This document shows, piece by piece, positions 50 to 29,803 of a stretch of DNA of 39,524 bases. The stretch lies in contig JAAFHB010000019.1 of assembly GCA_010906965.1 (NCBI GenBank), forward strand, positions 1 to 39,524, in the 5' to 3' direction. A program made the position numbers and the translations under genes. The number at the start of each line of letters is the position of its first letter. Positions within the stretch are counted from its first letter, which is position 1. This stretch comes from Mariniphaga sp. Its GTDB lineage: Bacteria > Bacteroidota > Bacteroidia > Bacteroidales > Prolixibacteraceae. The notes under the pieces were generated by a model that made no database searches, had not been told where the DNA came from, and was given only the letters and a program-made list of their open reading frames with translations.

Positions 50-91
50 CAGCATAAAAAAACCGGACGATGATCCGGTTTTTTTATGCTG
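50..91. terminator. Perfect inverted repeat, bidirectional intrinsic terminator after cas2
   Basis: Two perfectly complementary 18-nt arms (50-67 and 74-91) are separated by a 6-nt loop. Each arm carries a run of A or T outside a CCGGA core, so the RNA from either strand ends in a GC stem followed by a U tract. It lies 12 bp past the cas2 stop codon and should end the leftward cas transcript. It could equally stop a rightward transcript entering from outside the window. Positions 1-49 hold nothing recognisable and no CRISPR repeat. Confidence 0.85.
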
Positions 92-102
92 TCGAGTGAC
101 TA

Positions 103-447
<345 letters not shown>

Positions 448-459
448 TTAGGTGAGCGT

Positions 460-1374
460 TTAATTCATCTCAGGGTATTCAATCTTTCGCAATTCGCCCA
501 GGAAGCATTTGGCAAGTGACGCAGTTGTCTGTTGAGCGGCCAGCATCAGCGGGCTTCGCCGGTCATTGATTGTCACATCCAATACTGGTATCTGCAATAG
601 TTTGGCTTTATGTTCTTTGGTTAACTCTTCTGGCATTTCGGGGCCATCGAGAATTTCAAGAACCAACCGGTCAACATAGGGACGGTAAGGTTCCATGACA
701 TCATCGGCAAGGCAATAGGCATTGTACCGGTTGTGGTGGTGAATCCCAAGTGTTGGTAACATTCCCGAAGCAACAAGTGATCGCGCAACAGTTGCACGTA
801 AAATTGCATAGCCGTAGTTGAGTAGGTTGTTCGGGGCGAAACCGTCGGGGTCGCGCCTGAAATCGAGCGATGTATCGAAGAGTTCACCCCAGTAGTATGC
901 CGCTGCCCGACCCTCATGGTTCTCGGTATCACCACTCTTCACCTGATCGGCCCAGTATTTCATATTTTCAGTTTTTCGCCCTTCCTGGTTTAGTACCGCT
1001 GCCTGATTCAAAATTTTCTGTCGGACTGTTTGCTGCCACAACTGTTTGCGCAATGGTTCTGAAGCGTTAATCTGATGCGTAAACCTTTCACATTGCGTGG
1101 TGTTCCCTTCCAAAGGCAGTAGCAATCCTGTGGGCATATGACGGTGGTCGCAGGTGAGTACTGCGACATTATTTTCCACCAGGGCACTCATCAGTTGGTG
1201 GGTGATGGTGATTTGCGGGTTTTCGAGCACCACAAAACCAATGTCCTCAATCGGAATGGTGATTGTACGATCTTTTTCGGGTAAAGCGGAAGTTTCCGGC
1301 AGGTTGATCACCAACTGCTCATCCTTAAAACGGAGATAAGCCGGGTTTCCAAAGAAAAGGGTGCGTTTGATCAT
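460..1374 (-). CDS. cas1: CRISPR-associated integrase Cas1 (type II)
   Basis: Cas1 is the metal-dependent integrase that, with Cas2, inserts new spacers at the leader end of the array. The 304-residue length fits the type II subfamily. The start MIKRTLFFGNPAYL and the N-terminal beta domain are typical. The metal ligands are present: E154 in HEGRAAAYYWGELF, a histidine in LGIHHHNRYNAY (H212-214), and E228 in DDVMEPYRPYVDRL. All catalytic residues are intact, so the adaptation module looks functional. The gene lies 24 bp upstream of cas2. It is separated from cas9 by a DUF6261-like gene and about 450 bp of repeat-containing DNA, which is unusual because cas9 and cas1 are normally adjacent in type II-C loci. 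Confidence 0.97.
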   Translation of the reverse strand: MIKRTLFFGNPAYLRFKDEQLVINLPETSALPEKDRTITIPIEDIGFVVLENPQITITHQLMSALVENNVAVLTCDHRHMPTGLLLPLEGNTTQCERFTHQINASEPLRKQLWQQTVRQKILNQAAVLNQEGRKTENMKYWADQVKSGDTENHEGRAAAYYWGELFDTSLDFRRDPDGFAPNNLLNYGYAILRATVARSLVASGMLPTLGIHHHNRYNAYCLADDVMEPYRPYVDRLVLEILDGPEMPEELTKEHKAKLLQIPVLDVTINDRRSPLMLAAQQTTASLAKCFLGELRKIEYPEMN

Positions 1375-1493
1375 GGATGTTAGTTTTTAATTTGGCATAA
1401 ACCCAATAATTTCCCTCGGGGAAATTTAAGAATCTGTTTAATTTGGTCTTCTGATCCAGTAAGGGATCAAATGTGGGTAGAACATCGGTTATT

Positions 1494-1534
1494 ATGCAAG
1501 GGTCCGCCCCGGACAGGGACGGAATATTTTGCAT
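1494..1534. repeat. REP-like palindromic element
   Basis: Outer arms ATGCAA (1494-1499) and TTGCAT (1529-1534) flank a GC-rich inner hairpin, GTCCG/CGGAC with a CCC loop (1502-1514), followed by GGGACGGAATATT. Bacteroidota genomes often carry dispersed elements with a GTCCC...GGGAC core next to AATATT, and this looks like one. Its sequence differs from the REP units near 28 kb, so it would belong to another family. Only one copy is seen in the window. Confidence 0.4.
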
Positions 1535-1781
1535 CAGTTCACATTTTGCACTTCGATGATTGAAATGGTTCTTTGTGAATCTGATACCGATCCTTGCGAA
1601 CTTTGTGGTGAATTTTTTAACACAAGGAACACAAAGGTTGCACAAAGAAAACGGTTTTTAAATCAGGAGGGGATGAATACCTTATTATCCTGAACCCAAC
1701 CTATTAAGGTTTAAAAATGGAATAAGGTTTTTTCCTTTCCATCCGGGGTTAAAATGTTTCTTCGTGAAACGCATTGTAAGA

Positions 1782-1808
1782 GAGGGTTTCACACTGCGTA
1801 AAACCCTC
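1782..1808 (-). terminator. Hairpin just downstream of the DUF6261-like gene
   Basis: GAGGGTTT (1782-1789) pairs perfectly with AAACCCTC (1801-1808) around an 11-nt loop, 13 bp after the stop codon of the leftward gene. No clear U tract follows on the leftward transcript, so termination may be weak and some read-through into cas1 is possible. Confidence 0.45.
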
Positions 1809-1821
1809 ACTAGCCGGAATT

Positions 1822-2562
1822 TTATTTAATAACAGTCGCCTTTTCTGTTTCTGTCTCCGGTTCGGCAGCCCGTGTGTTCAGCAGTGTGATATACTGATCG
1901 ATCAGCGCGTTTAGTGCATTGATCAATTTTTCATAAGCTGCACTTGGATTTAGTACCGAATTAGCATCGATGAATTTCCGCAACTCGTAATAGGCGAGCA
2001 CAGTCTCTTCACGTTTTGACTTCAGCGTGTCGGGATTTGCAGCGCCGTACTCCTCTGTCCGTTCGAGATATTTCTGTTCGAATAGCTGGTTTGCAGCTTT
2101 TAATTCGGCAACCCATGCAGTAAGTCCAAGCAATGTAATGGCAGCTGTCAGCTCAGGTTTAGTTTCCCAATCTTTGACGATGGCATCGATTGTTCCCGAT
2201 TCAGATGGCAGATTCATTTTGGCAACCCCTTTGCCATAAAGATTTAAACTCGCTAGCAGAAGGTTGGCAGCCTTAACAGTAGCACTGTCAAAGTGGTAGC
2301 AATAACTTTCGATCATACCACTTATCCCATTAATAGCCTTGTCGCGGCGTTCGTCGTCCAATACCAACTCCTGCGTAAGCGGACTTGACTGTTCCAGTTT
2401 GAAGAGCTGTGACGTTTCGTCTAATTTGATTTTAAAGGCAACGTGTTGCGGTTCGATATTCAAAACAACCGGATCGTTTGCATTTACCAAACCATAAAAA
2501 TCGGCTCCGAATCTCAAAAACTCTACATTTCGTAATGTTCTTAGATCAATTGCATTTATCAT
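1822..2562 (-). CDS. DUF6261-like protein of unknown function, inserted between cas9 and cas1
   Basis: The 246-residue protein starts MINAIDLRTLRNVEFLRFG and resembles the Bacteroidota family I know as DUF6261; no function is established for it. It has no signal peptide and no membrane segment. It appears almost entirely helical, with a long mixed-charge helix around residues 150-185 (AELKAANQLFEQKYLERTEE) and an acidic, Glu/Thr-rich tail (residues 230-246). No nuclease, polymerase or nucleotide-binding motif is visible. It is on the cas strand, but gaps of 376 bp to cas9 and 447 bp to cas1 argue for its own transcript. Three tandem 41-bp repeats lie upstream of its start, and the leader is very A-rich. 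It could be a passenger carried by a repeat-associated element, or an accessory of the CRISPR locus; the sequence does not decide. Family assignment is moderately confident. Confidence 0.7.
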   Translation of the reverse strand: MINAIDLRTLRNVEFLRFGADFYGLVNANDPVVLNIEPQHVAFKIKLDETSQLFKLEQSSPLTQELVLDDERRDKAINGISGMIESYCYHFDSATVKAANLLLASLNLYGKGVAKMNLPSESGTIDAIVKDWETKPELTAAITLLGLTAWVAELKAANQLFEQKYLERTEEYGAANPDTLKSKREETVLAYYELRKFIDANSVLNPSAAYEKLINALNALIDQYITLLNTRAAEPETETEKATVIK

Positions 2563-2566
2563 GTTA

Positions 2567-2600
2567 AATTTTTTTTAATGTGGAATAATTTTTTTTAATG
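2567..2600 (-). repeat. Duplicated A-rich leader segment upstream of the DUF6261-like gene
   Basis: A 14-nt block, AATTTTTTTTAATG on the plus strand, occurs at 2567-2580 and again at 2587-2600, 20 nt apart. On the coding strand this puts two runs of eight A directly before the ATG at 2562. Bacteroidota favour A-rich ribosome-loading leaders, so the block may set translation efficiency, or mark a small duplication. Confidence 0.6.
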
Positions 2601-2699
2601 ACCAGGTGACTGCACTCATTAAATGAGGAAAACTACAACGCGTCGGTTTGGTTCCTTAAGACGTAACCGGGTCATTTCTTTTTATATTTTATCTTCCGG

Positions 2700-2822
2700 T
2701 GTTCCGGAAACGTTCCTGCCCTTGGCGCGGAGCTTGCCGATGTTCCGGAAACGTTCCTGCCCTTGGCGCGGAGCTTTCCGGCGTTCCGGAATCCTTCCTG
2801 CCGTCAGCGCGGAGCTTTCCGG
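2700..2822 (-). repeat. Three tandem copies of a GC-rich 41-bp unit with complementary ends
   Basis: Units lie at 2700-2740, 2741-2781 and 2782-2822. The first two are identical except for three or four bases near the right end; the third has about six further changes (for example CCGTCAGCGC for CCCTTGGCGC). Read leftward, each well-kept unit starts CCGGAAAG and ends GTTTCCGGAACA, so its ends can pair as a 7-bp stem around CTCCGCGCC; the junctions between units can pair as well. As 41 is not a multiple of 3, successive copies fall in different reading frames, which argues against a protein repeat. The block is far richer in G and C than its flanks and lies about 140 bp upstream of the DUF6261-like start, on the side of cas9. 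Confidence 0.85.
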
Positions 2823-2938
2823 AAAAAATGGAAGCAGATCTGCCAATGGCAGTCTATCATCGGATGCACCCGAAAACGTCCAGCCAATAACCGGAGGCTT
2901 TCGGGAAGCAGAAGCCGGGGCTCCACTTAAAATTGTAC

Positions 2939-5900
2939 TTAGGTAAGTGATTCTTCAACTTTTAAAGTTTTATTTAGAATAGGTTTATTATTTATGGATG
3001 TTATTTGGCCTATACGGTTTACCTGGAGTTTTTCGCAAGTTTCTTTAATGGATACCCCTTCTATTCCTTCGAGCTTATTTAACTGACTAAATTCAAACTT
3101 GTCAACAATTGATGAAGAAATGTTATTGGGAATTGCATATAACCGACTGCCAGTGAAACTTACTATTTTATAAACTCGGTTTACTTGATCTAATGACAGA
3201 TTTGCAAAATCAATGTGAAATTTGGAGTTCGTATCGTCCTTTGGATGAATGTAAACCAAGTCATTAGGCGAAAGGTAAAAAGCTAATTGTTCACCTTTAT
3301 CATTCGTTTCTGGTACTGGTTTAAGTCCTTGTTTTTGGCGTTCGATCACAATATTTAAAGGGATGCTTTCGTAGCTACGCTTTCCTTCGCTGTTTTGATA
3401 GATTGCAAAGAACAGATTAGTTCCCTTTGCCGCCTCCACGTATTTTTGGCCTTTATTACCGGTTGTGCCTACATTGAATTTATTTCCTTTAGGTTCAAAA
3501 GTCCGGACTTTATAGATGGGTTGGTGGAATTTACCATCATTAAGCTGGACGATATTCTTATTCATTTCGTCTAGTCCATCGGGTGAGAAGGCCAGTTCTG
3601 GATGCTCAATAACCTTCCCATCTTTAGTTTCATTGTATTTCTCGAGATGATTAAGCATGATTTTTTGGCTGGCCGTATCGGTAATGCTTTTGATAAAATT
3701 GGTATTATACGCTTCGTTTATTGAAGACCTGGAAGCGACCATCTCTTTTTCGAAATAGTATATTTCAACTTTTGAGATACTATTTCCATCCCATTTGTCT
3801 TCTAATTCTTTGAAAAATTTCCGGAGCTTTGTCTTATCAAAGCCTTGTTTTACAAGTGTCTTTATTTGATTTTTCAATGATTTATCGACCATCATTTCCC
3901 ATTGGTCGAGTGCCGCAGAGAGTTGCACTGTTTTTTTGAAACGTAATTGCACCAACCCAGCAACCGTCTCTTTGTGCATCGGTTTACGGATCGCCCAATG
4001 GTCACCAGTTTTCTGCTTTGTGAATACTTTTTTCAAACTTCCATCGTCCTGCGTTTCCCATCTCTGATACCAGTTGCTGGTCTTATTAATAACTCGGATA
4101 TTTTGTTTAAAACTGACGATAGTCGTTGAAAGGGTGTGACGTGCATCCTGCGTAAACGTATCCCATGGTTTATAAAACGACCATTTATAATTTCCATTTT
4201 CATCTGGTTTCGTTTTAAAACATAGTTTTTGCTTTAAATCGTAACGGGATTCTTTTGAAGTTGATTTAGCCGACTCATTATTCAAATAATTGATATGACT
4301 TCTGGAGGCACACGCTATAACCAATGCATCCATTGCATGATGGCGGTGGTCGATCCGTTTTTTAGTAAATCCCTTTTGCAGTTCAAGTGGTATCTCCGTT
4401 TGAAAAACTCTTTTCCCATCTTTGTTTGTCCAATGTCCAAAATTATTGCTTTTGGTGAGATCGTTTAATCTTTCAAAACGAGGGGTAATTAGCTCATTCC
4501 AAACATCGTTTAGTCCCCAATCTTGCTTTAATGTTGAGGTGATACTTCCGTTGCAGGCTGCAATATTTTTCGATGTGGTTTCAACTTCGCCCTCTTCGCG
4601 GACAATGTTTGACAAGAGATTTTTGATCAGTTTGCTGATATACTTTGTATCGTTCAATTGTCGGTTGATGAAATCATCGGGAATATCTTCCATGAGTAAT
4701 TTCTTCATTTTGCTTCTGTTTTTTGCAAAACGGTTTTTTACAAAATCTTCGTAAGCGTCGAGGGTGAAAAGCGTTACCTTTTTACCAAAATCTAATTCGA
4801 TGATCTTACCATGTTGTTCTTTGATATAAGCGTAAGCGGTTTTGTTGTCTTTATCCTTGTTCACTACCGACTCGCAGATGACTTTATTGCTTAACGAATC
4901 GTCGAAATAGCGTGATTGTGGTATAATGTGCTCAATCTCATAACTTGAAGTAAAGAGTTTCCCAAGTGGGATAATTTCTCCGGTATAGGGTGAACGGTAT
5001 TGTTGGTCGAGCCAAAGCTTATACCTTGTTAATTCTGATGAAGTCGGTTGAGCATTTTTACTGATTTTTAGTATTTCGTCAGGGATATCGGCAACAGCAC
5101 TTAAAACACCCTCTTCATATAATTTTAGAATTTCTTGCTGACTTGGCGAATATGGACGGACATTTTGAACGGTGTTATCGTTCTTTAATTCTGCGAGCAA
5201 TGCCTTAATCCGCAGGTTCGTGTTTTCATTTTCTGTTACAACAGATGTGAGTCGTTTCCGTTGATCGGCAGTATTTTTCATTTCGCGCCCTAACTCAATA
5301 TGAATTTCATCGAAGAAATCTTTTTCTCCGTTGCCAAATTGTTTCCAGATATCGGTAACAACCCTAAGTGTTTCTGTTACGACTTGTTCTACAATAGGAT
5401 TTCGAAGAGAATGTTGCTTAAATGTATCGTTTAAGTAGTGTTCAATATCGATTGGTACCTCCCATTTAACAACTTCACCCTCTTCGGAGTGTCTGCCATA
5501 CACAGCATAACATGCCTGATAAGTATTTAGGGCGGTTAATGGATTACGGCAATCGATAAAGCTTTTTAATACTTGCTTTGGAATATCATCATCAGCGATG
5601 TTGGCAATTCTATTTTTTTCATAATCAATCGAATCGAGACGCTCTACGATTGCTGAAATGCGTTTTTTAGTATCAATTGAAATGGCTTCATCCGACCAAT
5701 ATTTTCCTCTGCGCATCAGCGGCAATAACTTTTTAATTGCTTTTGCGGAATAGGCGCCGTACTCCTTCTTAAACGGGGTAAATTTTTTGAAGTTCTCTAT
5801 AAATTCCTTTGGCAGGCTGCGCTTACCGGCAAAAGTTGTCAGTGCTTTTTCTATCTCTATCTTATCATCTATCGAGCTTAGAATATGCCAAAGTTGCTCT

Positions 5901-7552
5901 TCGATATCCTTAGTTAAAAACTCTGGTGCGATATCCGATGTTTTTAATTTTGTAAGCATCTGTGACCTTGTTTCGTTCGCCGGATAAGTTTTATCTTCTA
6001 CATAATTCCACCGGTAGAGTTCTACATTCTTCTTCAAATTAAACGCAGGATATTTCAGGAAAGCTTTCTGATCTATTTCTTTGCGGTCATTTAGAAAATC
6101 GAATAAGGCAACCCAATCTTCCTCTGATTTTAGAAATTCAGAGGTAACATTGATATCGGTATTAAGCCGACCATCGATGTATTTTTCACGCTGATAGATT
6201 GTCAGGTTTTGCAGGAATTGCCAAAGCCGAAATTCCTGAAATAATGGGTGCGACCTTGCAATACATTTTAATGCATCATTTTGCAATATCCCTTCCTTAT
6301 CAAGGTACGACCGCGATTCGTAGCGGCACTCGCTGATTTCCGATTTCTTGCTTTTTAAAGGACGCTGATAAAAAATAATGTCATTAATAAAGAGATGGGT
6401 AAAGTCTTTCTGGCTATATGTATTCCGATGATCCTGATTGTTTCGGTAAAGTTCTTCAAGACAAGCCGTATAATTTTTCTTGTCTTGTAATTCGGAGTGA
6501 AAGGTTTGTTGTTTATCGAGAATGAGCTTCAACTCTTCGCGATAGAATCTCCGTTCGATGGTACGAACGAGCTTCCCTTTAATTTTTTGACCCGGAGATT
6601 GGAGCAAAGTATCATAGATATAGGTTCCTACCGTATGATTAGTCCGCTCAATTTCTGCTTCAGTTTTCTTTTTAACCAATGTCCAGTCATCAGCACCTGG
6701 TGACCTGAATGAGCGTTTTTCTTTTCCCTCTTTATCTGTTTTGATACTTCCGTCATCGTTGAGATCCGTAGTGACAATGAATTCTTTAATCTTTCCAACC
6801 CAATCAAGCGGTGTCCGGCTTGTGCGTCTGTAAATCCATCCATTTTCCAAAACAACATTATACCAGATTTCTTCCTTACTTTTCCTGTCACCGCTATCTA
6901 AAACTTCAACGACCTTTAGCGTATGAAATTCAACAAGTTTATTCTTGCTATCGTCTTCATCTTCACCGCGGAGTTGATAGTAACCGCGTTTTTGGTTAAA
7001 ATGAAGTAGCAACCATGCTAATTCTGCTTTTGCAATGGGATATGTCAACGCTTTTTTGCGGAGAAAATAAATTGTCCAGTCGTAAGGTATCTTTTTATTG
7101 TTTTCAAATAACTGGGGTTGTATTTTTTTAAAGTCCTCAATCATTTCATCGAATGAGTCTTTGAATAGGAATTCGTATTTCCCGGTCTCTGCATTAAGTT
7201 GATAGGCTATTTTAGGCTCGGCATGATTCAAAAACTGTCCGAAATGACAATCAAAGTCAATCTGGTCTGAGTAATGTTCTGGTAGAAATCCCAATTTGTA
7301 AAGGACTCTGTTCAATCTTTCCCTTCGTAATAAAAAACGTTCTCTTAATCTCCGAATCCCTCTGAAATTTGTTCTATCTGCCGTCTGTGAAACAGGATTT
7401 CCTTTTTCAAAATCGCCAATACTGGTTTGATCCATAGGAATTATCCTTGATCCTATACCAAGTATTTTTCCGGACTTTTCCTTAAAGTCTTGTTCGGTTA
7501 AGGCCCATCCGATACTGTTGGTTCCTAAGTCAAGTCCTAAAATTTTTTTCAT
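2939..7552 (-). CDS. cas9: CRISPR-associated endonuclease Cas9 (type II-C, 1537 aa)
   Basis: Cas9 is the RNA-guided effector that cuts target DNA with two nuclease domains. All catalytic residues are present: RuvC-I D8 (KKILGLDLGTNSIGWAL), RuvC-II E753 (IHIELGREM), the HNH pair E874-H875 (IEHIIPQSRYFDDS) with N898, and RuvC-III H1071/H1072 and D1075 (HHAMDALVIA). An arginine-rich bridge helix (FRGIRRLRERFLLRRERL) is near residues 64-81. After RuvC-III about 460 residues remain for the PAM-reading C-terminal region. At 1537 residues it is at the long end for type II-C, though large Cas9s are common in Bacteroidota. No cas4 or csn2 is seen, which with cas1-cas2 fits II-C. The only ATG that keeps RuvC-I is at 7552. 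A tracrRNA gene diverges from its 5' end. PAM preference cannot be read from sequence. Confidence 0.97.
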   Translation of the reverse strand: MKKILGLDLGTNSIGWALTEQDFKEKSGKILGIGSRIIPMDQTSIGDFEKGNPVSQTADRTNFRGIRRLRERFLLRRERLNRVLYKLGFLPEHYSDQIDFDCHFGQFLNHAEPKIAYQLNAETGKYEFLFKDSFDEMIEDFKKIQPQLFENNKKIPYDWTIYFLRKKALTYPIAKAELAWLLLHFNQKRGYYQLRGEDEDDSKNKLVEFHTLKVVEVLDSGDRKSKEEIWYNVVLENGWIYRRTSRTPLDWVGKIKEFIVTTDLNDDGSIKTDKEGKEKRSFRSPGADDWTLVKKKTEAEIERTNHTVGTYIYDTLLQSPGQKIKGKLVRTIERRFYREELKLILDKQQTFHSELQDKKNYTACLEELYRNNQDHRNTYSQKDFTHLFINDIIFYQRPLKSKKSEISECRYESRSYLDKEGILQNDALKCIARSHPLFQEFRLWQFLQNLTIYQREKYIDGRLNTDINVTSEFLKSEEDWVALFDFLNDRKEIDQKAFLKYPAFNLKKNVELYRWNYVEDKTYPANETRSQMLTKLKTSDIAPEFLTKDIEEQLWHILSSIDDKIEIEKALTTFAGKRSLPKEFIENFKKFTPFKKEYGAYSAKAIKKLLPLMRRGKYWSDEAISIDTKKRISAIVERLDSIDYEKNRIANIADDDIPKQVLKSFIDCRNPLTALNTYQACYAVYGRHSEEGEVVKWEVPIDIEHYLNDTFKQHSLRNPIVEQVVTETLRVVTDIWKQFGNGEKDFFDEIHIELGREMKNTADQRKRLTSVVTENENTNLRIKALLAELKNDNTVQNVRPYSPSQQEILKLYEEGVLSAVADIPDEILKISKNAQPTSSELTRYKLWLDQQYRSPYTGEIIPLGKLFTSSYEIEHIIPQSRYFDDSLSNKVICESVVNKDKDNKTAYAYIKEQHGKIIELDFGKKVTLFTLDAYEDFVKNRFAKNRSKMKKLLMEDIPDDFINRQLNDTKYISKLIKNLLSNIVREEGEVETTSKNIAACNGSITSTLKQDWGLNDVWNELITPRFERLNDLTKSNNFGHWTNKDGKRVFQTEIPLELQKGFTKKRIDHRHHAMDALVIACASRSHINYLNNESAKSTSKESRYDLKQKLCFKTKPDENGNYKWSFYKPWDTFTQDARHTLSTTIVSFKQNIRVINKTSNWYQRWETQDDGSLKKVFTKQKTGDHWAIRKPMHKETVAGLVQLRFKKTVQLSAALDQWEMMVDKSLKNQIKTLVKQGFDKTKLRKFFKELEDKWDGNSISKVEIYYFEKEMVASRSSINEAYNTNFIKSITDTASQKIMLNHLEKYNETKDGKVIEHPELAFSPDGLDEMNKNIVQLNDGKFHQPIYKVRTFEPKGNKFNVGTTGNKGQKYVEAAKGTNLFFAIYQNSEGKRSYESIPLNIVIERQKQGLKPVPETNDKGEQLAFYLSPNDLVYIHPKDDTNSKFHIDFANLSLDQVNRVYKIVSFTGSRLYAIPNNISSSIVDKFEFSQLNKLEGIEGVSIKETCEKLQVNRIGQITSINNKPILNKTLKVEESLT

Positions 7553-7557
7553 GCTAT

Positions 7558-7587
7558 TTTGTGTTTCGATAATAATTACTAATTTAG
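7558..7587 (+). promoter_or_regulatory. Candidate tracrRNA promoter
   Basis: TTTG (7558-7561) and TAATTTAG (7580-7587) are spaced by 18 nt, close to the Bacteroidota -33 TTTG / -7 TAnnTTTG pattern with one mismatch in the -7 box. The implied start, about 7592-7595, falls exactly at the beginning of the anti-repeat. The element overlaps the short leader of the divergent cas9 gene, so the two transcripts may interfere with each other. Confidence 0.5.
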
Positions 7588-7591
7588 CCGT

Positions 7592-7677
7592 ACAATTTGA
7601 AGCAAATCACAATAAGGATTATTCCGTTGTGAAAACATTTAAGCCACCCTCGTCTTACAATACGGGGGTATTTTTTT
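7592..7677 (+). ncRNA. tracrRNA of the type II-C locus
   Basis: This RNA pairs with CRISPR repeats to form the guide loaded into Cas9. Its anti-repeat (about 7593-7613, CAATTTGAAGCAAATCACAA) is the complement of a sequence starting TTGTGATTTGCTTCAAATTG, which is the form of 5' repeat end found in Bacteroides-type II-C arrays (GTTGTGATTTGC...). Next comes a nexus-like segment with a GGATTATTCC hairpin and GTTGTGAAAACA (7616-7640). Last is a terminator: ACCCTCGT (7646-7653) pairs with ACGGGGGT (7662-7669), followed by seven T (7671-7677). The predicted length is about 86 nt. It is divergent from cas9. Start and processing sites are inferred. Confidence 0.85.
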
Positions 7678-8008
7678 GCCATGTCCTGCAAAAAACGCCC
7701 AACTCCAAGCCGTACGACATAAGATCATCATTTGAAAAACAGTTGGTCTTGCATTTTAAACAATCATTATTTGTGGTATTCATGGTCGTGATGTGGTATT
7801 GGTTAGGCAATTAATGGCAAAATTCAAGTTGCGTGTAAAGGCACTCTAAAGTTGTAAAATATATTTGTTATTTGCCAAATAAATAGTGGAAAATATATGT
7901 TGGTCGACTTAAAAAGTTTATGGTGAGAATAGAAAACAAAGAAGGAGGTGCTTTTGGCAATATTAGCTATCTGTTTTGTGCATGCTTACCAAACATCATA
8001 AAAACGTA
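7678..8008. other. Intergenic stretch between tracrRNA and the gldN terminator
   Basis: I see no gene, CRISPR repeat or clear promoter in these 331 bp. Short plus-strand frames cross it but have no ribosome site or family resemblance. The stretch divides the CRISPR locus from the type IX secretion operon. Confidence 0.5.
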
Positions 8009-8040
8009 GCGCCGCATTCCGTTGGTACGGGATGCGGCGC
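8009..8040 (-). terminator. Terminator of the porP-gldKLMN operon
   Basis: GCGCCGCATTCC (8009-8020) pairs with GGGATGCGGCGC (8029-8040) over 12 bp with one G-T pair and an 8-nt loop. On the leftward transcript it is followed by TACGTTTTTATG. It lies 18 bp after the gldN stop codon and is a convincing intrinsic terminator. Confidence 0.85.
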
Positions 8041-8058
8041 AATGTCGTATTGTTTTGT

Positions 8059-8907
8059 TTAATATTCCCAGAGATCCTGCTCGTAATTAAAGATGGAGTT
8101 TTTGATTCTTTCGGATTCTTTGGCGGCATATTCGCCCTTCGCATAGTCCGAAATCGCCCGGTTGTTATAGGTGTTTTCTTCTTTCACAATATAACCATCA
8201 AATTTCCGGGTAAGGAATAAGTCGTCAAAACTTAAGCTACGCGCCCCGTTAAATCCGTTAAGTGATTCGTTTTTTGCAAGAAGGGGACGAATTTCAGGAT
8301 AATAAACCCAGAAAAGTTTTTTGCGGACATAAGCCGTATCGGTTGGTTCTTTTTTGTAGACCCTGATCGGACAGATTCCGAGAATCCGAACCTGAAGCGT
8401 CGACTTTTGTTTGTCGAAATACCAGACCTCTTTTATTTCCAATTGCTTGACTTCCTGTACTGGGATTTCAGCAGCAACAATTGAATCACGTGCAGCATTG
8501 GTATCTATATCGATGACCTGTATCTTCTTAACAGAGTCTCCAAACTGTTGCTTAACCTGATTGTAATCGATTGGTTTAAAGAATTCACTCTCAGCAACGT
8601 CCGGATCGAATGCGGTAATTATCTTCGCTTCAATTCCTTTTAAAAGGACATTAAACAGGTTATAGCGCCCTTGTATTACACGGGTTGGATAATAAAAATG
8701 CTGGTTTGCTTTTTCGCGTAAATCGATGGTCCGCCAGACGGTTCTTGACCATACGGCATCTGACTCCCGCACCAATGGGAGCGGAGCCGGTTTGCGATCA
8801 ATGGTTGTCCGCTTTGTATAAACACCATCGACGATGACCTGAGCTTGCAAATATTGTGATGCAGCTCCAATCAGAATTAATGCAAGGATCAATAATAATT
8901 TTTTCAT
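8059..8907 (-). CDS. gldN: Type IX secretion/gliding ring protein GldN (PorN)
   Basis: GldN is a periplasmic protein that joins the GldK ring and the GldM shaft in the type IX secretion system. The 282-residue product starts with a signal peptide (MKKLLLILALILIGAASQYLQAQ). The rest has the GldN layout: an early VYTKRTTIDRKPAPLPLVRESDAVWSR-type region, then KEVWYFDKQKSTLQVRILGICP and a Tyr/Arg-rich tail. It is the last gene of the operon, 2 bp after gldM, and is followed by a strong terminator. Length and order match gldN/porN in Flavobacterium and Porphyromonas. Identification is firm from family features plus synteny. Confidence 0.93.
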   Translation of the reverse strand: MKKLLLILALILIGAASQYLQAQVIVDGVYTKRTTIDRKPAPLPLVRESDAVWSRTVWRTIDLREKANQHFYYPTRVIQGRYNLFNVLLKGIEAKIITAFDPDVAESEFFKPIDYNQVKQQFGDSVKKIQVIDIDTNAARDSIVAAEIPVQEVKQLEIKEVWYFDKQKSTLQVRILGICPIRVYKKEPTDTAYVRKKLFWVYYPEIRPLLAKNESLNGFNGARSLSFDDLFLTRKFDGYIVKEENTYNNRAISDYAKGEYAAKESERIKNSIFNYEQDLWEY

Positions 8908-8909
8908 CG

Positions 8910-10451
8910 TTAATTTATTTTAAAGCTTATCGAAGGTAAATTACGTACCGAGCCATCATCACCTTTTACTACAATGCTCTCGATATATAACCGGCCTCCA
9001 GGATTTAATCCTTTCATCAGATCTTTCTGGTCCTGCGAGAACCGGTTTCCTTTTGCCGGTTTATCAACTACAAAGCCGCCCTTGGATGTTGAAACGACAA
9101 ATGAAGTAACTGAAAAGTTCATCTCGAAATCGAAATCCGGGATCTTCGCCACAACGCCCTGTTGTGCTAATAACTCATTCTTTGTTATTGCTCCCTCTAT
9201 TTTACCTGCGACCGAAGCAACGGGGTCAGGAACTCTTTTTACACGGAATGGCATCGAACCAATCTCTTTCGTGGTTCCGTCAATCAGGGCACTCACAGAA
9301 ATTGTCGAAAGGACGCCTATCTTATCCGGCCTGACAACATAACCTGTTGCACCGGGCTGAATAGAACCATTTGTAATCGATACTTTTACATTGGTTGGTG
9401 ATATCCCGGGTACTGAAACTGAAACGGGATTATCGAGACCTGCATAAAAGACATTCATCTTTGTTGGCGAAACAGTCATCGAAGGTTTGGCCACTTCGTA
9501 TTCGTGTTTGAACGGGTACGCGACGATAATGCCATCCGGATTCTTGTAATTGATATGCCCGCTCCATTCAACTTTGCCCTCCCGTGATGTTACAACTTTG
9601 TATAATCCGGCATTTTCGCCCGACATCATTGGCAAGGTCGATCCACCAACAATAATTTCCGGTTTAACGGTTGTATCGACAGCAGAAAGAAAAACTTTGG
9701 CTTCATAAGCACTACCTTGAAGAACAAAGTCAGATTTCGAAACTACCTGCGCCTGAAGCTTATTAAATTTGAATGAGGAAGCATCAATCTGAGCATATAA
9801 GTGATGGATAACATCCGACTCGGCATTACGTACGTCACTTTGAATTTTTGACATTAGGGTAATAACGGCTATCAATGGATATCCCTCAAATTTACTCGAT
9901 TCCCACGAAGGTGTGCTTCCTTCCTTTTTTGGAGGAGGTGCAGTACTAAGACTCTGGTTGATTGAAGTTATTAATTCGGTATTTGAGGTATCAATTAAAG
10001 CAAGAAGTGAACTTCGGTAGGCTTCAATTGCATTCTTCAATGCTGTTCCATTTTTTTTAGTAATCATAATCTCTGCCGCAAAGTTTAGGTTCTCTTGTGC
10101 CTTTATGGCATTGACATCACCTTCGGGACCATCAGCCGTTTTAACGATTAACTCTTTTAAACTGAAAATGTAGCGGTACAACGAATCGGAACTTGCTTTC
10201 ACTTTTAAAACTTCTTTGTTGAGTTCACCTGCTTTTTGCGGATTTTCCTGTGCTGCATTGTTGAAATCGTTGTAAACCCGCTGGTTCTTAGCCGTGAAAT
10301 TTTCGATTGTTTGCATGAAATTATTATTGACCACGGCAAATGCATCTAACACTGATTTGTCAACATTGAGCGCTAACATCGCGGTCAATACAAGATACAT
10401 CAAACTGATCATTTTTTGTCGGGGCGCTTCCGGACAGTATTTTGTTCCCAT
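8910..10451 (-). CDS. gldM: Type IX secretion motor shaft protein GldM (PorM)
   Basis: GldM spans the periplasm and passes the motion of the GldL/GldM inner-membrane motor to the GldK/GldN ring. The 513-residue protein has one N-terminal membrane helix (MISLMYLVLTAMLALNVDKSV, about residues 14-34) and a long periplasmic part. The first part is helical (residues 40-230); several beta domains follow, including the VSPTKMNVFYAGLDNPVSVSVPG segment typical of the GldM C-terminal domains. It begins 7 bp after gldL and ends 2 bp before gldN, so these genes are tightly coupled. Length and domain order match the family. Confidence 0.95.
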   Translation of the reverse strand: MGTKYCPEAPRQKMISLMYLVLTAMLALNVDKSVLDAFAVVNNNFMQTIENFTAKNQRVYNDFNNAAQENPQKAGELNKEVLKVKASSDSLYRYIFSLKELIVKTADGPEGDVNAIKAQENLNFAAEIMITKKNGTALKNAIEAYRSSLLALIDTSNTELITSINQSLSTAPPPKKEGSTPSWESSKFEGYPLIAVITLMSKIQSDVRNAESDVIHHLYAQIDASSFKFNKLQAQVVSKSDFVLQGSAYEAKVFLSAVDTTVKPEIIVGGSTLPMMSGENAGLYKVVTSREGKVEWSGHINYKNPDGIIVAYPFKHEYEVAKPSMTVSPTKMNVFYAGLDNPVSVSVPGISPTNVKVSITNGSIQPGATGYVVRPDKIGVLSTISVSALIDGTTKEIGSMPFRVKRVPDPVASVAGKIEGAITKNELLAQQGVVAKIPDFDFEMNFSVTSFVVSTSKGGFVVDKPAKGNRFSQDQKDLMKGLNPGGRLYIESIVVKGDDGSVRNLPSISFKIN

Positions 10452-10458
10452 CTTCGAA

Positions 10459-11439
10459 TTAACCTTTTACGTTCATTGCTCCAAGCATATTACCATAAAC
10501 ATGGTTAAGTGCTTCCAAATTTTTATTTAGCTGTTCTGTGTGTTTGCGGTATTTCTGAGCTTCTTCAAGCGAATTATTTACCACTTCGGTCATTTTAGAA
10601 TAACCTTCAAAGGCTTTTGCCGATGAGTCGGAAAGCTTTTTGGTATTCTGTAAATGAAGTTCGTAAGATGAATTTAAGGCCGACAAGCTTGTGTTAATAT
10701 GCGAAAGTCCGTTACTGTAGGTTTTGGTTTGATCGGTTAAGACCGTCAAATCCTTATTTATCAGTTCTGTAAAACTTTTATACGATTGTGCAAGTTTGTC
10801 ACCGGATGTAGATAGCTGTTCGTTAATTTTTTTCGAAGAGTCGTTAAACGTCTGAGCCAGATTCTTTGATGAATTAGTCAAAATCTGCGTAGATTGGTCG
10901 TAAGAATGGATCAGATCGGTCGTGGATTTTTCAATCGAATGGGTTGCACGGGTATTAATATCGTTGATAGCGGCCATCGATTCTGAAGCGCCTGTCATGT
11001 TCTTTACATATTCATCCGTCACTAAAGTAGCACTCGAGATATCTGCAATTCCACTTGCAGCGTTGGAAAGATCCTGAAGTCCTTTTTTTATTTTGCCAAG
11101 TAATTCAGGCGAAATATCGGCTTTCTCGAATATATTGTCAATCGATTTTGGCTGTTTGGTTGGATAAGGAAGTTCTTCCTCTTCTTCAATACCAATATAG
11201 TCGGGACGGAGTTGACGGTATACTTTTTTCCAGTCAGGTATTTCGACAGAAGGTTCAAATGCGGAAAGGAAAAAGATCAGTACTTCGGTTGACATCCCAA
11301 TGGTAAGCATTGTACCTCCACCTGTCCAATGTTGCAGTTTGAATAATGCTCCCATTAAAACAACGGCAGCTCCCCAACTGTAGCAATAATTCATGAAGTT
11401 TTTCCACTTACTTGAATGTGTTAATTCAGACATTCCCAT
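10459..11439 (-). CDS. gldL: Type IX secretion motor protein GldL (PorL)
   Basis: GldL is the stator-like inner-membrane subunit that, with GldM, turns proton flow into motion for secretion and gliding. Two membrane helices fill residues about 18-63. The charged residues known to matter in the family are present: K34 and H37 in ALFKLQHW, and E52 in STEVLIFFLSAFEP, which matches the proton-binding glutamate of GldL. The cytoplasmic region after residue 70 is long (about 255 residues), Ser/Asn/Thr-rich and coiled-coil-like, with repeated helices resembling chemoreceptor signalling domains. Two ATGs (11439 and 11433) could serve as start; both keep the helices. It lies between gldK and gldM in the usual order. 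Confidence 0.95.
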   Translation of the reverse strand: MGMSELTHSSKWKNFMNYCYSWGAAVVLMGALFKLQHWTGGGTMLTIGMSTEVLIFFLSAFEPSVEIPDWKKVYRQLRPDYIGIEEEEELPYPTKQPKSIDNIFEKADISPELLGKIKKGLQDLSNAASGIADISSATLVTDEYVKNMTGASESMAAINDINTRATHSIEKSTTDLIHSYDQSTQILTNSSKNLAQTFNDSSKKINEQLSTSGDKLAQSYKSFTELINKDLTVLTDQTKTYSNGLSHINTSLSALNSSYELHLQNTKKLSDSSAKAFEGYSKMTEVVNNSLEEAQKYRKHTEQLNKNLEALNHVYGNMLGAMNVKG

Positions 11440-11465
11440 AATAATCAGTATTTTTTAGATTGTTG

Positions 11466-12812
11466 TTATTTTTTTGATTGAAACTCATCTCCGAAGGTGG
11501 AACGGACGCAGCGAAAGCCGACATACGATTTGGCTGTATCCTGGTATTCGAACGTACGAGTACCAACCTGGATAAAATAGGCGATGTCTTTCCATGATCC
11601 GCCGCGGATTACTTTCCGCTTCATCGCCGGTGGATCATCCGGAAGTGCGTTTTGTTCGAAGTTGGGATTCAGGTCGTGCATGAAATTATAGGCCGACTCG
11701 TCGTAGGCACTAATTGTCCATTCCGCAACATTACCGGCCATGTCGTAGAGTCCATATCCGTTGGGATCGTAAGTTGCAACTTTAACAGTAGTTTTACCTC
11801 CATCGTCGCTGTAATTTCCGCGCATGGGTTTAAAGTTGGCCAGAAAACAACCTGTTTGAGAGCGTGTATAATATCCACCCCAGGGATACATCGAATTATT
11901 TAAACCGCCACGTGCTGCCAGTTCCCATTCTGCTTCTGATGGTAAACGGTAATCCTGTACGGCAAAGTCACCTCTTTCGGCAAGGGTTGAATTTTTGAAA
12001 TTCGTACGCCACATGCAAAATGCTTTTGCCTGTTTCCAGGTTACCCCAACGACGGGATAATCGTCAAACCCGGGGTGCGAAAAATACTTGTTTGTAAGTG
12101 GTTCGTTGAATGCATAAGAGAAGTCGCGGATCCAGACCAATGTGTCGGGGTAAATATTAGTTCCTTCATTCATTATAAAACTTGAGCGTCCCTCGATAGG
12201 GACCACTTTTCCCGTAAGATCGTTCACAGTTCCCTGATAACTTTGTGTCTGGAAGTTGTAAGCATTCTGAAGACGGGCAGCCTGCTGCAGGTCAACCCAC
12301 GAATAACTGTAGTTTAGCTTTCTTGGATCGAGTTCCTTTTTACCCAGGATCCTGTCGTTGCCAGCGTAATACATTGGTTCCAGAGCATCTTTATAATCGG
12401 GATTGCGCCAGTCGAGTTTTCTTTTCCAGTCGAGAATCGGCGGGTCAATCGGATTACCTTTCCGGTCCTCTGTAATTTTAAATTCTGCGAACTGATCGGA
12501 TAGCATTGTTCGTGCCATCGAGTCACGAACCCAATAAACGAATTGTCGGTATTCGTTATTGGTAATTTCAGTGTCGTCCATCCAGAAAGTGGATAGGTCG
12601 ACAGTCCGTGTTGGTGAGGTAGCATAAGCCACATCCTGATCACCGGGACCCATATTGAAACTTCGCCCTGGAATTAGCGCCATGCCAAGAGGGGAAGGCT
12701 CAAAATACTTGCCCCGTTTTTCCACTCCCGTCAATTCTCCGTTACCACCTTTGTGGCAACCGACTAACAAGAGAATCGACGATATACAACCAAAGAAAAA
12801 CAATCGCTTCAT
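11466..12812 (-). CDS. gldK: Type IX secretion ring lipoprotein GldK (PorK)
   Basis: GldK is an outer-membrane lipoprotein that builds the large periplasmic ring of the type IX system together with GldN. The 448-residue product has a lipoprotein signal with a LVGC lipobox (Cys19). The body is a formylglycine-generating-enzyme/sulfatase-modifying fold: MALIPGRSFNMGPGDQD near residue 45, FWMDDTEITNNEYRQFVYW near residue 75, YRLPSEAEWELAARGG near residue 288 and VIRGGSWKD near residue 400. In GldK this fold serves structure, not catalysis. It begins 45 bp after porP and ends 26 bp before gldL. Paralogues such as GldJ share the fold, but the position before gldL identifies gldK. Confidence 0.94.
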   Translation of the reverse strand: MKRLFFFGCISSILLLVGCHKGGNGELTGVEKRGKYFEPSPLGMALIPGRSFNMGPGDQDVAYATSPTRTVDLSTFWMDDTEITNNEYRQFVYWVRDSMARTMLSDQFAEFKITEDRKGNPIDPPILDWKRKLDWRNPDYKDALEPMYYAGNDRILGKKELDPRKLNYSYSWVDLQQAARLQNAYNFQTQSYQGTVNDLTGKVVPIEGRSSFIMNEGTNIYPDTLVWIRDFSYAFNEPLTNKYFSHPGFDDYPVVGVTWKQAKAFCMWRTNFKNSTLAERGDFAVQDYRLPSEAEWELAARGGLNNSMYPWGGYYTRSQTGCFLANFKPMRGNYSDDGGKTTVKVATYDPNGYGLYDMAGNVAEWTISAYDESAYNFMHDLNPNFEQNALPDDPPAMKRKVIRGGSWKDIAYFIQVGTRTFEYQDTAKSYVGFRCVRSTFGDEFQSKK

Positions 12813-12856
12813 AGTTCGTTTAATATGTTGTGCTCAACTATATTTTTACGCCAAAG

Positions 12857-13846
12857 TTACAAAAATCTTACACTTCTGTACTTGTGCGTACGTTTTTTGT
12901 TTAATAAAACTGAATATGCCAGAAATAATTCATGCGATCCGGCGTTATATCTTGATAATGAGGACGTACTGATGTCGTAAGCGTAGCCAAACTTTATACC
13001 GTTCCATAACTCTGTTCCGAAGGTTAAAATAATTGCATCTTTTACGCGATAACCGATTCCTCCCCATATTCTTTTATCATACTGAACAGTCATGTTGAGG
13101 TCTGCTTGCCAGGTTGTTGTTTCAGTTTTAAAGAAGAACGAAGGAAGAACTTCGAATCGTTCATCTGCCATTTGAACAGTGTAGCTTCCACTCATGTAAT
13201 AGTGCCTTCGAAGTGAATACCTGCCTGTTTCTTCGAACAACAACGTGGGCTGATTCAGGTGCCTGGCAGAGAGTGCAAGATCGAAATTTTTACACTGGTA
13301 ATAGAATCCAGCTCCCACGTCAACCAAAACACCCGTTGCTTTGCCTTGGGGAAGTCCCGGATCTGTTAAATTGAAATTATCAAAATCGCTCCACCTATTT
13401 ATTTCCGACATGTCAAGATTCTTATTCATCAAACCCAACGAAACACCCGATCCCAGGATACCATTGCCGATTTTTGTCCTCCATGAATAATTTAATCCAA
13501 ACGAAATATTTTTTTCAAAACCGATAACATCATTTACTACAGATAAACCAATTCCGTCATTCTTCCCGATTAAATGGGCTGATGCATCAGCATTGAAAAC
13601 GATTGTAACTGGGGCACCCGGGAATCCAACCCATTGATATCTATTTAATAATGAAAAGTTTATAAGTCCTGATGATCCTGCAAAGCCCGGGTTTACTGTC
13701 AGTTGATTCAACCGATTCTGACTAAACTGGGGATCTTGCTGAGCTTTTGCTGCAAAAATACTAATATTTATTAATAACAACAATAGAATAGCATTGTTCA
13801 ATATTTGCCTTATGCTATCATTGATATTTGTTTTTTCATAATTCAT
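12857..13846 (-). CDS. porP: PorP/SprF-family type IX secretion outer-membrane protein
   Basis: PorP/SprF proteins are outer-membrane beta-barrels that accompany the type IX translocon and often help display particular cargo. The 329-residue protein has an extended N-terminal signal (hydrophobic stretch at residues 17-33, cleavage near AKAQ) followed by the family hallmark QQDPQFSQNRLNQLTVNPGFAGSSG. The remainder shows alternating beta strands (GIGLSVVNDVIGFEKNISFGLNYSWR, then a C-terminal FGYAYDISTSSLSRYNAGSHELFLAYS) as in the family. It is the first gene of the porP-gldKLMN operon, as in Porphyromonas. Some Bacteroidota carry several PorP copies; this is the one linked to the core operon. 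Confidence 0.9.
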   Translation of the reverse strand: MNYEKTNINDSIRQILNNAILLLLLINISIFAAKAQQDPQFSQNRLNQLTVNPGFAGSSGLINFSLLNRYQWVGFPGAPVTIVFNADASAHLIGKNDGIGLSVVNDVIGFEKNISFGLNYSWRTKIGNGILGSGVSLGLMNKNLDMSEINRWSDFDNFNLTDPGLPQGKATGVLVDVGAGFYYQCKNFDLALSARHLNQPTLLFEETGRYSLRRHYYMSGSYTVQMADERFEVLPSFFFKTETTTWQADLNMTVQYDKRIWGGIGYRVKDAIILTFGTELWNGIKFGYAYDISTSSLSRYNAGSHELFLAYSVLLNKKRTHKYRSVRFL

Positions 13847-13901
13847 GAGCAGGATGGTAACTTTTGTGGATTCGCATTTAGCGGTAACGCAATTTCATAA
13901 A

Positions 13902-13909
13902 CAAAGATA
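13902..13909 (-). promoter_or_regulatory. Candidate -7 box of the porP-gldKLMN operon
   Basis: Read leftward the box is TATCTTTG, an exact fit to the Bacteroidota TAnnTTTG consensus. It lies 56 bp before the porP start and just past the stop of the upstream arginase-like gene. The -33 region is weak (a TTCG about 22 nt upstream). It implies a separate transcript for the secretion operon. Confidence 0.5.
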
Positions 13910-13921
13910 TAACTTTACTAA

Positions 13922-15046: not shown

Positions 15047-15109
15047 GGGAAACAGAATTAATGGTTAACTCTTAAAAATATCAGATGCTGCACAAGCCGT
15101 TCGATACCT

Positions 15110-17446: not shown

Positions 17447-17792
17447 ACTTTTGAAGGATGATTTTGGTGCTTCTAAATTTTTTGCAAAGTAAAGAAAATC
17501 AAATCCTAAGTTCAAACATTTTCTTCATTCTTTATTGCATGATGTAAATGACCGACAACAAGAAGTCGTTGTAATTGTTCTGTAAATCAATGGTATATTC
17601 CTGATAAATAAATTATTTACAATGATATTCTTTTTAGTTACCTGCCATTCTGAATTTTTGCACAGCTATCATTAAATACCTGGAATAATTAATTCCGGGT
17701 ATTTGTAATGTTCAGAAATATAATGATTTAGTTATTAAAGGATCTTCCTGATTTTAGATCTGCTCATTTTGCCTCTACCACGATGCCGTTTG
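17447..17792. other. Intergenic stretch between the NIPSNAP gene and topA
   Basis: These 346 bp hold no credible gene. The one clear structure is a 13-bp hairpin at 17674-17704. The rest is AT-rich and should include the topA promoter, but no box matches TAnnTTTG on the leftward strand well enough to call. Confidence 0.5.
17674..17704 (-). terminator. Hairpin ending the fucose-linked operon
   Basis: AAATACCTGGAAT (17674-17686) pairs with ATTCCGGGTATTT (17692-17704), 13 bp with one G-T pair and a 5-nt loop. It lies about 90 bp after the NIPSNAP stop codon on the leftward transcript. Its U tract is short, so it could be a weak terminator or a processing stem. Confidence 0.55.
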
Positions 17793-18575: not shown

Positions 18576-18656
18576 TGTTTGTTCTTTAAAGCGTTATTGT
18601 TGATTAAAAATTATTTGATGATTTATGCAATTGCGGAAAATCGATTTCTCTTTTAC

Positions 18657-19790: not shown

Positions 19791-19871
19791 TTGATTTTGT
19801 TTGGTTTTCTAAAAAATGCAAATTGATGTGATGAAATAAGTTAGTCTTTTAAGTCGTTTTTTAATAACAAA

Positions 19872-19909
19872 TTCGCGTCCCTTCCCCATGAAAGGGAACA
19901 GAACGCGAA
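19872..19909 (-). terminator. Stem-loop between the fucosidase and GH105 genes
   Basis: TTCGCGT (19872-19878) pairs with ACGCGAA (19903-19909), and inside it CCCTT (19879-19883) pairs with AAGGG (19892-19896). The leftward RNA then reads TTTGTTATTAAAAAACG. The structure may partly end transcription after the fucosidase or protect the upstream mRNA end, giving different levels for genes on either side. Confidence 0.55.
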
Positions 19910-19954
19910 AAGTAAGCAAATATTTTATAAAAATTGTTTCTTAAATGATAATGC

Positions 19955-29794: not shown

Positions 29795-29803
29795 TTATAT
29801 TTG
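29773..29803 (+). promoter_or_regulatory. Promoter of the ATPase gene
   Basis: TTG (29773-29775) and TATATTTG (29796-29803) are spaced by 20 nt. The -7 box is an exact TAnnTTTG match, and the -33 box lies inside the second palindromic unit. The implied start near 29810 gives a leader of only about 9 nt before the ATG at 29819. It may also drive menA-menC-menE. Confidence 0.65.

What the first reader, a model, noticed from the sequence alone, without database searches (positions are those of the whole stretch)
1375..2938. DUF6261-like gene with a repeat block lodged between cas9 and cas1
In type II-C loci cas9, cas1 and cas2 are usually contiguous. Here about 1.56 kb separates cas9 from cas1. 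It holds one uncharacterised helical protein, three GC-rich tandem 41-bp units upstream of it and several hairpins on its other side. Either a small repeat-associated element has landed in the operon without breaking a cas gene, or the protein and repeats are an accessory part of this CRISPR system (for example, control of adaptation separately from interference). The gene is on the cas strand, which both explanations allow.
Basis: partly seen in the sequence, partly recalled or inferred. Interest (0 to 1): 0.7.

Follow-up and report, generated by a model that had tools for sequence, protein, structure and literature searches.

The report
Fixed-period repeat cassette beside cas genes
Between two CRISPR genes sits a small gene with its own short repeat array; the same pair of gene and array, with a 41-42 base repeat whose letters differ from copy to copy, recurs in many Bacteroidota genomes, so it looks like an undescribed self-contained DNA cassette rather than a part of CRISPR.

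Summary
In detail: cas9 (2939-7552), a 41-bp x3.1 array (2694-2822), a DUF6261 gene (1822-2562), cas1 and cas2, all minus strand. The interest lies outside CRISPR. Of 145 DUF6261 upstream regions, 126 hold a tandem self-repeat: 107 with a period of 41 or 42 bp, 17 at 40 bp or a double or triple of 41-42, 2 others (122 of 141 after removing near-duplicates). Downstream, coding and shuffled controls give none at 41-42. Unit sequence differs between subfamilies; the period does not. Conserved columns recur every 10.25-10.5 bp (one DNA turn) and units tend to dyad symmetry without clear strand bias, which points to protein on one face of DNA. Two copies 2 Mb apart in one genome are 98% identical over a 1,242-bp block holding array and gene. 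A same-genus genome with 91% identical Cas9 lacks the gene, yet nine genomes have it at this place or at one readable side of it. Best reading: a dispersing chromosomal cassette whose array is a helically phased platform, most likely for DUF6261 itself (binding inferred, not shown). The papers searched did not describe it.

The parts
1822..2562 (-). DUF6261 gene, 246 aa, predicted all-helical; the family is mostly acidic
   Evidence: PF19775 E 8e-39; AlphaFold2 model pLDDT 88.2, nine helices; pI of family
2694..2822 (-). 41-bp x3.1 tandem array; unit with dyad TTTCCGG-aaca-CCGGAAA on the gene strand
   Evidence: for this array palindrome p 0.025, self-complementarity p 0.043, z 2.5
2869..2905 (-). 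possible degenerate extra unit between cas9 and the array (CCCGAAA..TTTCGGG), in DNA shared with a relative that lacks DUF6261
   Evidence: by eye; homology of 2860-3049 with L187
2598..2675 (.). imperfect 13-bp inverted repeat (arms 2598-2610 and 2663-2675) between array and gene; a like element lies in the gap of L187
   Evidence: by eye; REPIN-like reading is inference
1782..1808 (.). hairpin GAGGGTTT..AAACCCTC after the DUF6261 stop; a like one in L194
   Evidence: by eye; role not shown
1390..2859 (-). stretch (1,470 bp) without counterpart in L187, where 143 bp stand instead
2939..7552 (-). cas9 (flank)
   Evidence: TIGR01865 E 8.8e-118
460..1374 (-). cas1, type II (flank)
   Evidence: TIGR03639 E 1.5e-94
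103..435 (-). cas2 (flank)
   Evidence: TIGR01573 E 1e-19

Best explanation
The thing in the gap is one copy of a two-part chromosomal cassette of Bacteroidota: a tandem array of 41-42 bp units followed by a DUF6261 gene. SHOWN: the pairing, the fixed period with different unit sequences, the one-turn periodicity of conserved columns, a dyad tendency without clear strand bias, and one clear case of array+gene duplicated as a block. INFERRED: the array is a phased DNA platform, four turns per unit, on which a protein assembles along one face; the protein is most likely DUF6261 itself acting on its own upstream region (autoregulation or silencing of the cassette, as SopB does on sopC); lineages drift to new unit sequences while spacing is held because the bound complex is what is selected. 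In this genome a copy lies between cas9 and cas1 as an independent neighbour, not as a CRISPR component.
For: Period: 126 of 145 upstream regions self-repeat (score 20 or more), 107 at 41/42, 17 at 40 bp or a double/triple of 41-42, 2 others; downstream 13 of 143 with none at 41/42; shuffled 0 of 145; coding 0 of 145. After removing four near-duplicate entries: 122 of 141, 105 at 41/42; downstream 12 of 139. Unit-to-unit spacing in 103 arrays (already chosen for period 41/42): 150 x 41, 234 x 42, 2 x 40, 13 longer (12 of them 81-126, one 183), no other. One-turn periodicity of conservation: z 18.8 over 77 arrays; z 10.4, 0 of 300 shuffles, over 27 arrays with proteins under 45% identical. Dyad symmetry: p 0.05 or less in 57 of 125 arrays. 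No clear strand bias: G.T 168, A.C 167; both strands fold better than column-shuffled arrays, z -2.9 and -2.6. Period follows the protein tree: 18 changes against 36, 33, 33 in the three shuffles printed. Duplication: L177/L178, 98.07% over 1,242 bp. Linkage: in 1.235 Mb of fetched loci (overlaps counted) arrays of 41/42 bp lie almost only upstream of DUF6261.
Against: No binding was tested. DUF6261 proteins are mostly acidic (median pI 5.0, n 136), which does not favour plain DNA binding, and no fold match supports it (best Foldseek E 0.035). 19 of 145 copies show no array at the threshold. Two 41-42 bp arrays stand without a DUF6261 gene near by: C113 of the own genome (no gene by the family search) and a 42-bp x7.8 array before cas9 in G045 (no DUF6261 in 7000-20454 of that contig; its unit reads as an open 14-codon repeat by eye, so it may be coding). 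Dyad symmetry is not significant in 68 of 125 arrays. G.T is slightly above the 0.459 share of control pairings (0.501, p 0.125). A third-harmonic peak exists too (z 5.6; 4.1). Promoter-like matches stand before the array in 7 of 107 (0.7 expected) and after it in 2 (0.3 expected), so some arrays may be transcribed. L177 and L178 also share one 146-bp stretch (83%) in their upstream flanks; no terminal repeats or target duplications were seen.
Confidence: 0.5

Rival explanations
1. The array is the mobility end of a non-autonomous element moved in trans by RAYT/IS200-like Y1 transposases that recognise its hairpins; DUF6261 is cargo or a helper.
For: Units often hold palindromes (38 of 126 at p 0.05, which still included the N-run row L115); RAYT-like genes lie within 4 kb of 8 of 146 DUF6261 genes and beside it in 6 of the 9 cas-linked genomes; the shared block of L177/L178 ends sharply.
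Against: 138 of 146 copies had no member of that RAYT cluster within 4 kb (other RAYT types could be missed); fixed 41-42 bp spacing and one-turn periodicity are not needed for hairpin recognition; few arrays without the gene in the DNA read.
Confidence: 0.2
2. The array is transcribed and works as a tandem-hairpin RNA bound by DUF6261.
For: Arrays fold better than column-shuffled arrays (z -2.9 sense); 7 of 107 have promoter-like matches before the array, 0.7 expected.
Against: The antisense strand folds as well (z -2.6) and is slightly more stable (sense lower in only 43 of 105, p 0.01); no significant G.U preference; conservation repeats at 10.25-10.5 bp, the B-DNA turn; no Rfam family over its cut-off in the gap.
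Confidence: 0.15
3. Accessory component of the type II-C system, e.g. control of adaptation.
For: DUF6261 stands between cas9 and cas1 in seven genomes and beside the one readable cas gene in two more; at least two arrivals are likely, since G130's copy is of another subfamily.
Against: Not seen in 23 of 30 type II cas1 loci, absent from G078 with 91% identical Cas9, truncated in G083; 7 of 140 genes in the tree carried the cas label (flanks of 1.5 kb could miss some).
Confidence: 0.06
4. A neutral minisatellite that happens to lie upstream of the gene.
For: Minisatellites arise by slippage; neighbouring units are only about 71-74% identical.
Against: One period in loci from across the phylum, strict position upstream, helical periodicity.
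Confidence: 0.03

Closest known systems
F-plasmid sopC/parS_F with SopB (ParB_F)
   Different: DUF6261 is not ParB-like by Pfam or fold; unit sequence varies between subfamilies; up to 14 matches per genome; no match to the window protein in the plasmid or phage collections
RAYT with REP/REPIN palindromes (definition partly recalled; abstract start of PMC3733652 seen)
   Same: Chromosomal, multi-copy, palindromic repeats near one protein family
   Different: DUF6261 has no Y1/HUH domain by Pfam; units are tandem with fixed spacing and rarely seen away from the gene in the DNA read
BrickBuilt MITE minisatellite of Porphyromonas gingivalis
   Same: Intergenic tandem-repeat element of Bacteroidota, many copies (abstract read, PMC4596501)
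   Different: 23-nt unit, leader and tail with small inverted ends and no own protein gene named in the abstract; here 41-42 bp and a gene
CRISPR array
   Same: Tandem units beside cas genes
   Different: No repeat/spacer division: units are similar along their length; true CRISPR arrays of 76-77 bp period lie after cas2 in relatives

Membership tests
DUF6261 (PF19775) | profile match over curated cut-off | tested here: met
   133.4 bits, cut-off 27
Type II-C accessory gene | kept in close relatives of the locus | tested here: not met
   seen in 7 of 30 type II cas1 loci, one truncated; L204 and L208 too short to tell; missing in G078 with 91% identical Cas9
Type II-C accessory gene | found mainly with cas genes | tested here: not met
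   7 of 140 genes in the tree carry the cas label, made by tblastn with the window's Cas proteins
ParABS / sopC centromere | tandem units of about 43 bp with inverted repeats | tested here: inconclusive
   41-42 bp period; dyad symmetry significant in 57 of 125 arrays only
ParABS / sopC centromere | ParB-type protein | tested here: not met
   DUF6261 is the only Pfam match over its cut-off; no significant fold match
ParABS / sopC centromere | ParA partner gene | tested here: inconclusive
   the 15 largest neighbour clusters were printed and none looked like ParA; no profile search was run on them
RAYT-REP | HUH/Y1 transposase | tested here: not met
   no Y1_Tnp match for DUF6261
RAYT-REP | repeats dispersed over the genome | tested here: inconclusive
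   with the window's unit one further array in the own genome, C113; arrays of other sequence were not sought genome-wide; in loci almost all lie upstream of the gene
CRISPR array | near-identical repeats with unique spacers | tested here: not met
   units vary along their length without a spacer block
TIGR-Tas | Nop-domain Tas protein (recalled definition) | tested here: not met
   no Nop match in Pfam
Known transposon or IS | terminal inverted repeats and target duplications | tested here: inconclusive
   ends of six groups of related copies read by eye, none seen

The most novel reading that the evidence does not exclude
DUF6261 cassettes are a new class of self-propagating chromosomal element that encodes spacing instead of sequence: a helical protein assembles on its own array with one contact per DNA turn and four per unit, so units can drift to very different sequences while the 41-42 bp register is enforced, and the complex controls or copies the cassette.
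Probability: 0.3. Interest if true: 0.9.

Novelty: categorically new. Interest (0 to 1): 0.72.

Why it matters
A gene family with no known function turns out to have a nearly constant DNA partner, defined by period and not by sequence. That is unusual (repeat systems are normally recognised by conserved letters, so this one escapes sequence searches) and makes an unknown family directly testable: one protein, one adjacent array, one spacing prediction. It also explains an odd gene inside a CRISPR operon without invoking CRISPR.

Tried and rejected
Rfam on the gap: one match, 23.8 bits against a gathering score of 80, to a microRNA family, taken as chance. Foldseek on two AlphaFold2 models: no hit at E 0.001 or below in PDB (both models) or viral structures (first model). 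A profile search of PDB sequences gave as best hits variants of the designed protein Tet4 (E 1.5e-6 for the whole sequence, no single stretch passing); taken as helical-bundle resemblance. Internal duplication of the protein: profile comparison of the halves E 0.017, probability 2.6%, not accepted. Polarity of the array: gene-end against leader-end pair identity not different (72 arrays, Wilcoxon p 0.12; middle against gene end p 0.06). AT-phasing (bent DNA): no power at one turn (z -0.4). RNA hairpin: see rivals. Relatives' CRISPR repeat in the own genome: none within 3 mismatches. The GTGAGGG hairpin as a dispersed REP: 0 found, but the fixed loop length of the pattern did not fit even the window's copy, so the test is void. 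PADLOC and NCBIfam: none for DUF6261.

Rows dropped or doubled: L115 was an N-run artefact and was left out from then on. Of the 146 genes, L121 is one frame-broken gene counted twice, and three further pairs have near-identical upstream DNA; one search recounts without the second members. In one search, 140 of 146 genes (150 aa or longer) went into the tree. One search used 77 arrays with at least 3.9 copies; one search used 27 representatives of them. In one search, 116 of 140 rows had a period label and 3 of 100 shuffled counts were printed. Related copies are not independent, so z and p values are inflated; one search is the deduplicated check for the periodicity only. The 57 of 102 restored pairs had no control.

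Full report
What is there. The gap between cas9 and cas1 (1375-2938) holds a DUF6261 gene (1822-2562, minus strand) and, upstream of it, a 41-bp tandem array of 3.1 copies (2694-2822). The window is the whole contig C231 of a 5.87-Mb draft genome in 509 contigs (99.6% complete, 7.9% contaminated). A contig of a same-genus genome (G081 C38, 12,817 bp) has the length of a named Mariniphaga sp. contig, so the genus is probably Mariniphaga, Prolixibacteraceae (inference). The contig begins 102 bp beyond cas2, so no CRISPR array is seen.

The pair is general. The own genome has five DUF6261 genes; all five have an upstream array, with periods 41, 41, 41, 42, 42 and different units. In the family 75 of 140 genomes have the gene, up to 14 matches in one genome; in an even sample of the phylum 12 of 395, one of these below the family's cut-off. 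I collected 146 gene entries from genome-search loci, 42 loci of named genomes (Chryseobacterium, Kaistella, Flavobacterium, Mariniphaga and others) and 60 stretches asked for by place. These were picked by similarity, rank or genome, not by array. One entry (L121) is a frame-broken gene counted twice.

The period. In 700 bp upstream, 126 of 145 show a self-repeat (score 20 or more): period 42 in 73, 41 in 34, doubles (82-85) in 10, triples (123-126) in 6, 40 in 1, others (24, 54) in 2. Controls: downstream 13 of 143 with none at 41 or 42; coding 0 of 145; shuffled upstream 0 of 145. Without four near-duplicate entries: 122 of 141, of which 105 at 41/42; downstream 12 of 139. Spacing between unit cores over 103 arrays, already chosen for period 41/42, was 41 (150), 42 (234), 40 (2) or longer (13: 81-126 in 12, 183 in 1). 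In 1,235,173 bases of loci (overlaps counted), nine rows of 41-42 bp were filed away from the gene; on reading them, seven lie upstream of it after all (the open frame ran into the array), one lies 1.1 kb upstream (L155) and one is the gene-less array of C113. A further array, 42 bp x7.8, lies before cas9 in G045 with no DUF6261 in 7000-20454 of that contig; its unit reads as 14 open codons by eye, so it may be coding. Because loci were fetched by the gene, gene-less arrays are under-sampled; only the own genome was searched for them, with the window's unit.

What the array looks like. Columns conserved among units recur at the fourth harmonic of the unit, 10.25-10.5 bp: z 18.8 over 77 arrays, top harmonic in 32 of 77, and with one array per protein group (under 45% identity) z 10.4, 0 of 300 shuffles, top in 10 of 27. 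A weaker third-harmonic peak is present (z 5.6 and 4.1). The purine pattern shows the fourth harmonic too (z 12.0), AT content does not. Units resemble their own reverse complement (p 0.05 or less in 57 of 125, mean z 2.0); single palindromes pass p 0.05 in 38 of 126 (L115 artefact included). In the window's subfamily the unit is about CTTTC-variable core-GAAAG plus a second dyad half a unit away (by eye). Mismatches at dyad pairs are G.T 168 and A.C 167, a G.T share of 0.501 against 0.459 in control pairings (p 0.125), and 57 of 102 double changes restore pairing, without a control. Sense and antisense RNA both fold better than column-shuffled arrays (z -2.9 and -2.6); antisense is slightly more stable (p 0.01). 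I take this as DNA-level symmetry. Promoter-like matches before the array in 7 of 107 (0.7 expected), after it in 2 (0.3), inside it in 0 (0.75) are against a pure DNA reading in those loci.

Protein. Two models (pLDDT 88.2 and 86.5) are all-helical, nine helices, without a significant fold match. The family is mostly acidic. That DUF6261 binds the array is inferred from linkage and from the period following the protein tree (18 changes; the three shuffles printed gave 36, 33, 33), not shown.

Duplication. In genome G068, copies L177 and L178, 2 Mb apart, are 98.07% identical over 1,242 columns, from -472 to +769 around the start codon (leader, array, gene and about 20 bp after the stop); beyond, the 8-kb stretches share only one 146-bp piece (83%) upstream. 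L134 and L141 of the same genome share -682 to +822 at 83%. Ends were read by eye; no inverted ends or target duplications were seen. So the evidence for movement rests on few pairs.

CRISPR. DUF6261 lies between cas9 and cas1 in the window, G083 (truncated), G092, G094, G030, G130 and the NC_groundwater_323 genome (L103; L067 is the same place by its matches). In G086 only the cas1 side and in the L092 genome only the cas9 side could be identified. That makes nine genomes. The copies of L092, L067 and G130 show no repeat signal; L087, L089, L090 and L061 have 41-42 or 83 signals of score 21-40. Among 30 type II cas1 loci of the family (1.5-kb flanks), 7 have DUF6261 and in 23 it was not seen; L204 and L208 are cut too short to tell. 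On the tree the seven cas-labelled copies need four label changes, at least two forced by well-supported branches; two changes could be one gain and one loss. G130's copy is of another subfamily (35% identical at best to the collected genes), so at least two arrivals are likely. G078 has 91% identical Cas9 and 90% identical Cas1 but 143 bp in place of window 2859-1390; since a unit-like piece remains next to its cas9 (by eye) this may be a loss and not a virgin site. So the gene is dispensable to the locus and not tied to one Cas9 type. No chance expectation for this site was computed.

A second resident of that gap. A RAYT-like gene lies directly before cas1 in 21 of 30 type II cas1 loci, with NHFH-like and Y..NP motifs (their meaning recalled) in 20 of 20 checked and Y1_Tnp matches in 2 of 5 proteins tested, one over the cut-off. 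It stands beside DUF6261 in 6 of the 9 genomes above; the window lacks it.

Literature. DUF6261 occurs in one paper of the library, in a table row about Streptococcus oralis (passage read, PMC10376253). Searches for 41/42-bp repeats in Bacteroidetes and related wording listed no paper on this pair by title or abstract start; beyond listings I saw the abstract of PMC4596501 and passages of PMC6238139 and PMC10309648. Subscription papers and preprints were not searched, so 'not described' is limited to these searches.

Verdict. Observation confirmed; the landing-element reading is supported and the CRISPR reading is not. The larger result, a fixed-period array of varying sequence tied to one gene family, is strong as anatomy (I would put it at 0.95) and moderate as mechanism (0.5). 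I rate the kind as new because it fails at least one defining test of each known repeat-plus-protein system I tried; if it proves to be plain autoregulation it would rank as a new variant.

Noticed in passing
L189, L190, L192-L195, L199-L207, L210-L215 (cas9-cas1 gap): A RAYT/IS200-like gene stands directly before cas1 in 21 of 30 type II cas1 loci of the family, motifs present in 20 of 20 checked; possibly an accessory of these systems.
   Followed up: partly
L216-L222, L087-L089: Cas1 is 78-92% identical to the window's among close loci while Cas9 ranges from about 25 to 91%, so cas9 seems to be swapped beside a stable cas1.
   Followed up: partly
L007:7904-8067 (G000:C113): 41-bp x4 array about 75% like the window's array, without a DUF6261 gene.
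   Followed up: partly
L225:266-593 (G045:C40): 42-bp x7.8 array before cas9 with no DUF6261 found in 7000-20454 of the contig; may be a coding repeat.
   Followed up: partly
L187:1400-1485 and window 2598-2675: About 78-bp elements with inverted ends (AGTGACCGGGTAACT..AGTTACCCGGTCACT in L187), REPIN-like by eye.
   Followed up: no
L063, L066, L091, L095-L099, L102, L109, L111: An XRE-type HTH gene (by eye) lies 163-473 bp upstream of DUF6261 on the same strand in 11 of 146 entries.
   Followed up: no
window 29750-29795: 15-bp palindromic tandem repeat TAACAAGCTTGTTAC x3.1.
   Followed up: no
window 50-91: 18-bp perfect inverted repeat just past cas2, terminator-like by eye.
   Followed up: no
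leaders of L055, L137, L134, L160, L045 and others: A shared motif near TAACTnACTGATTA precedes the array in one large clade (by eye).
   Followed up: no
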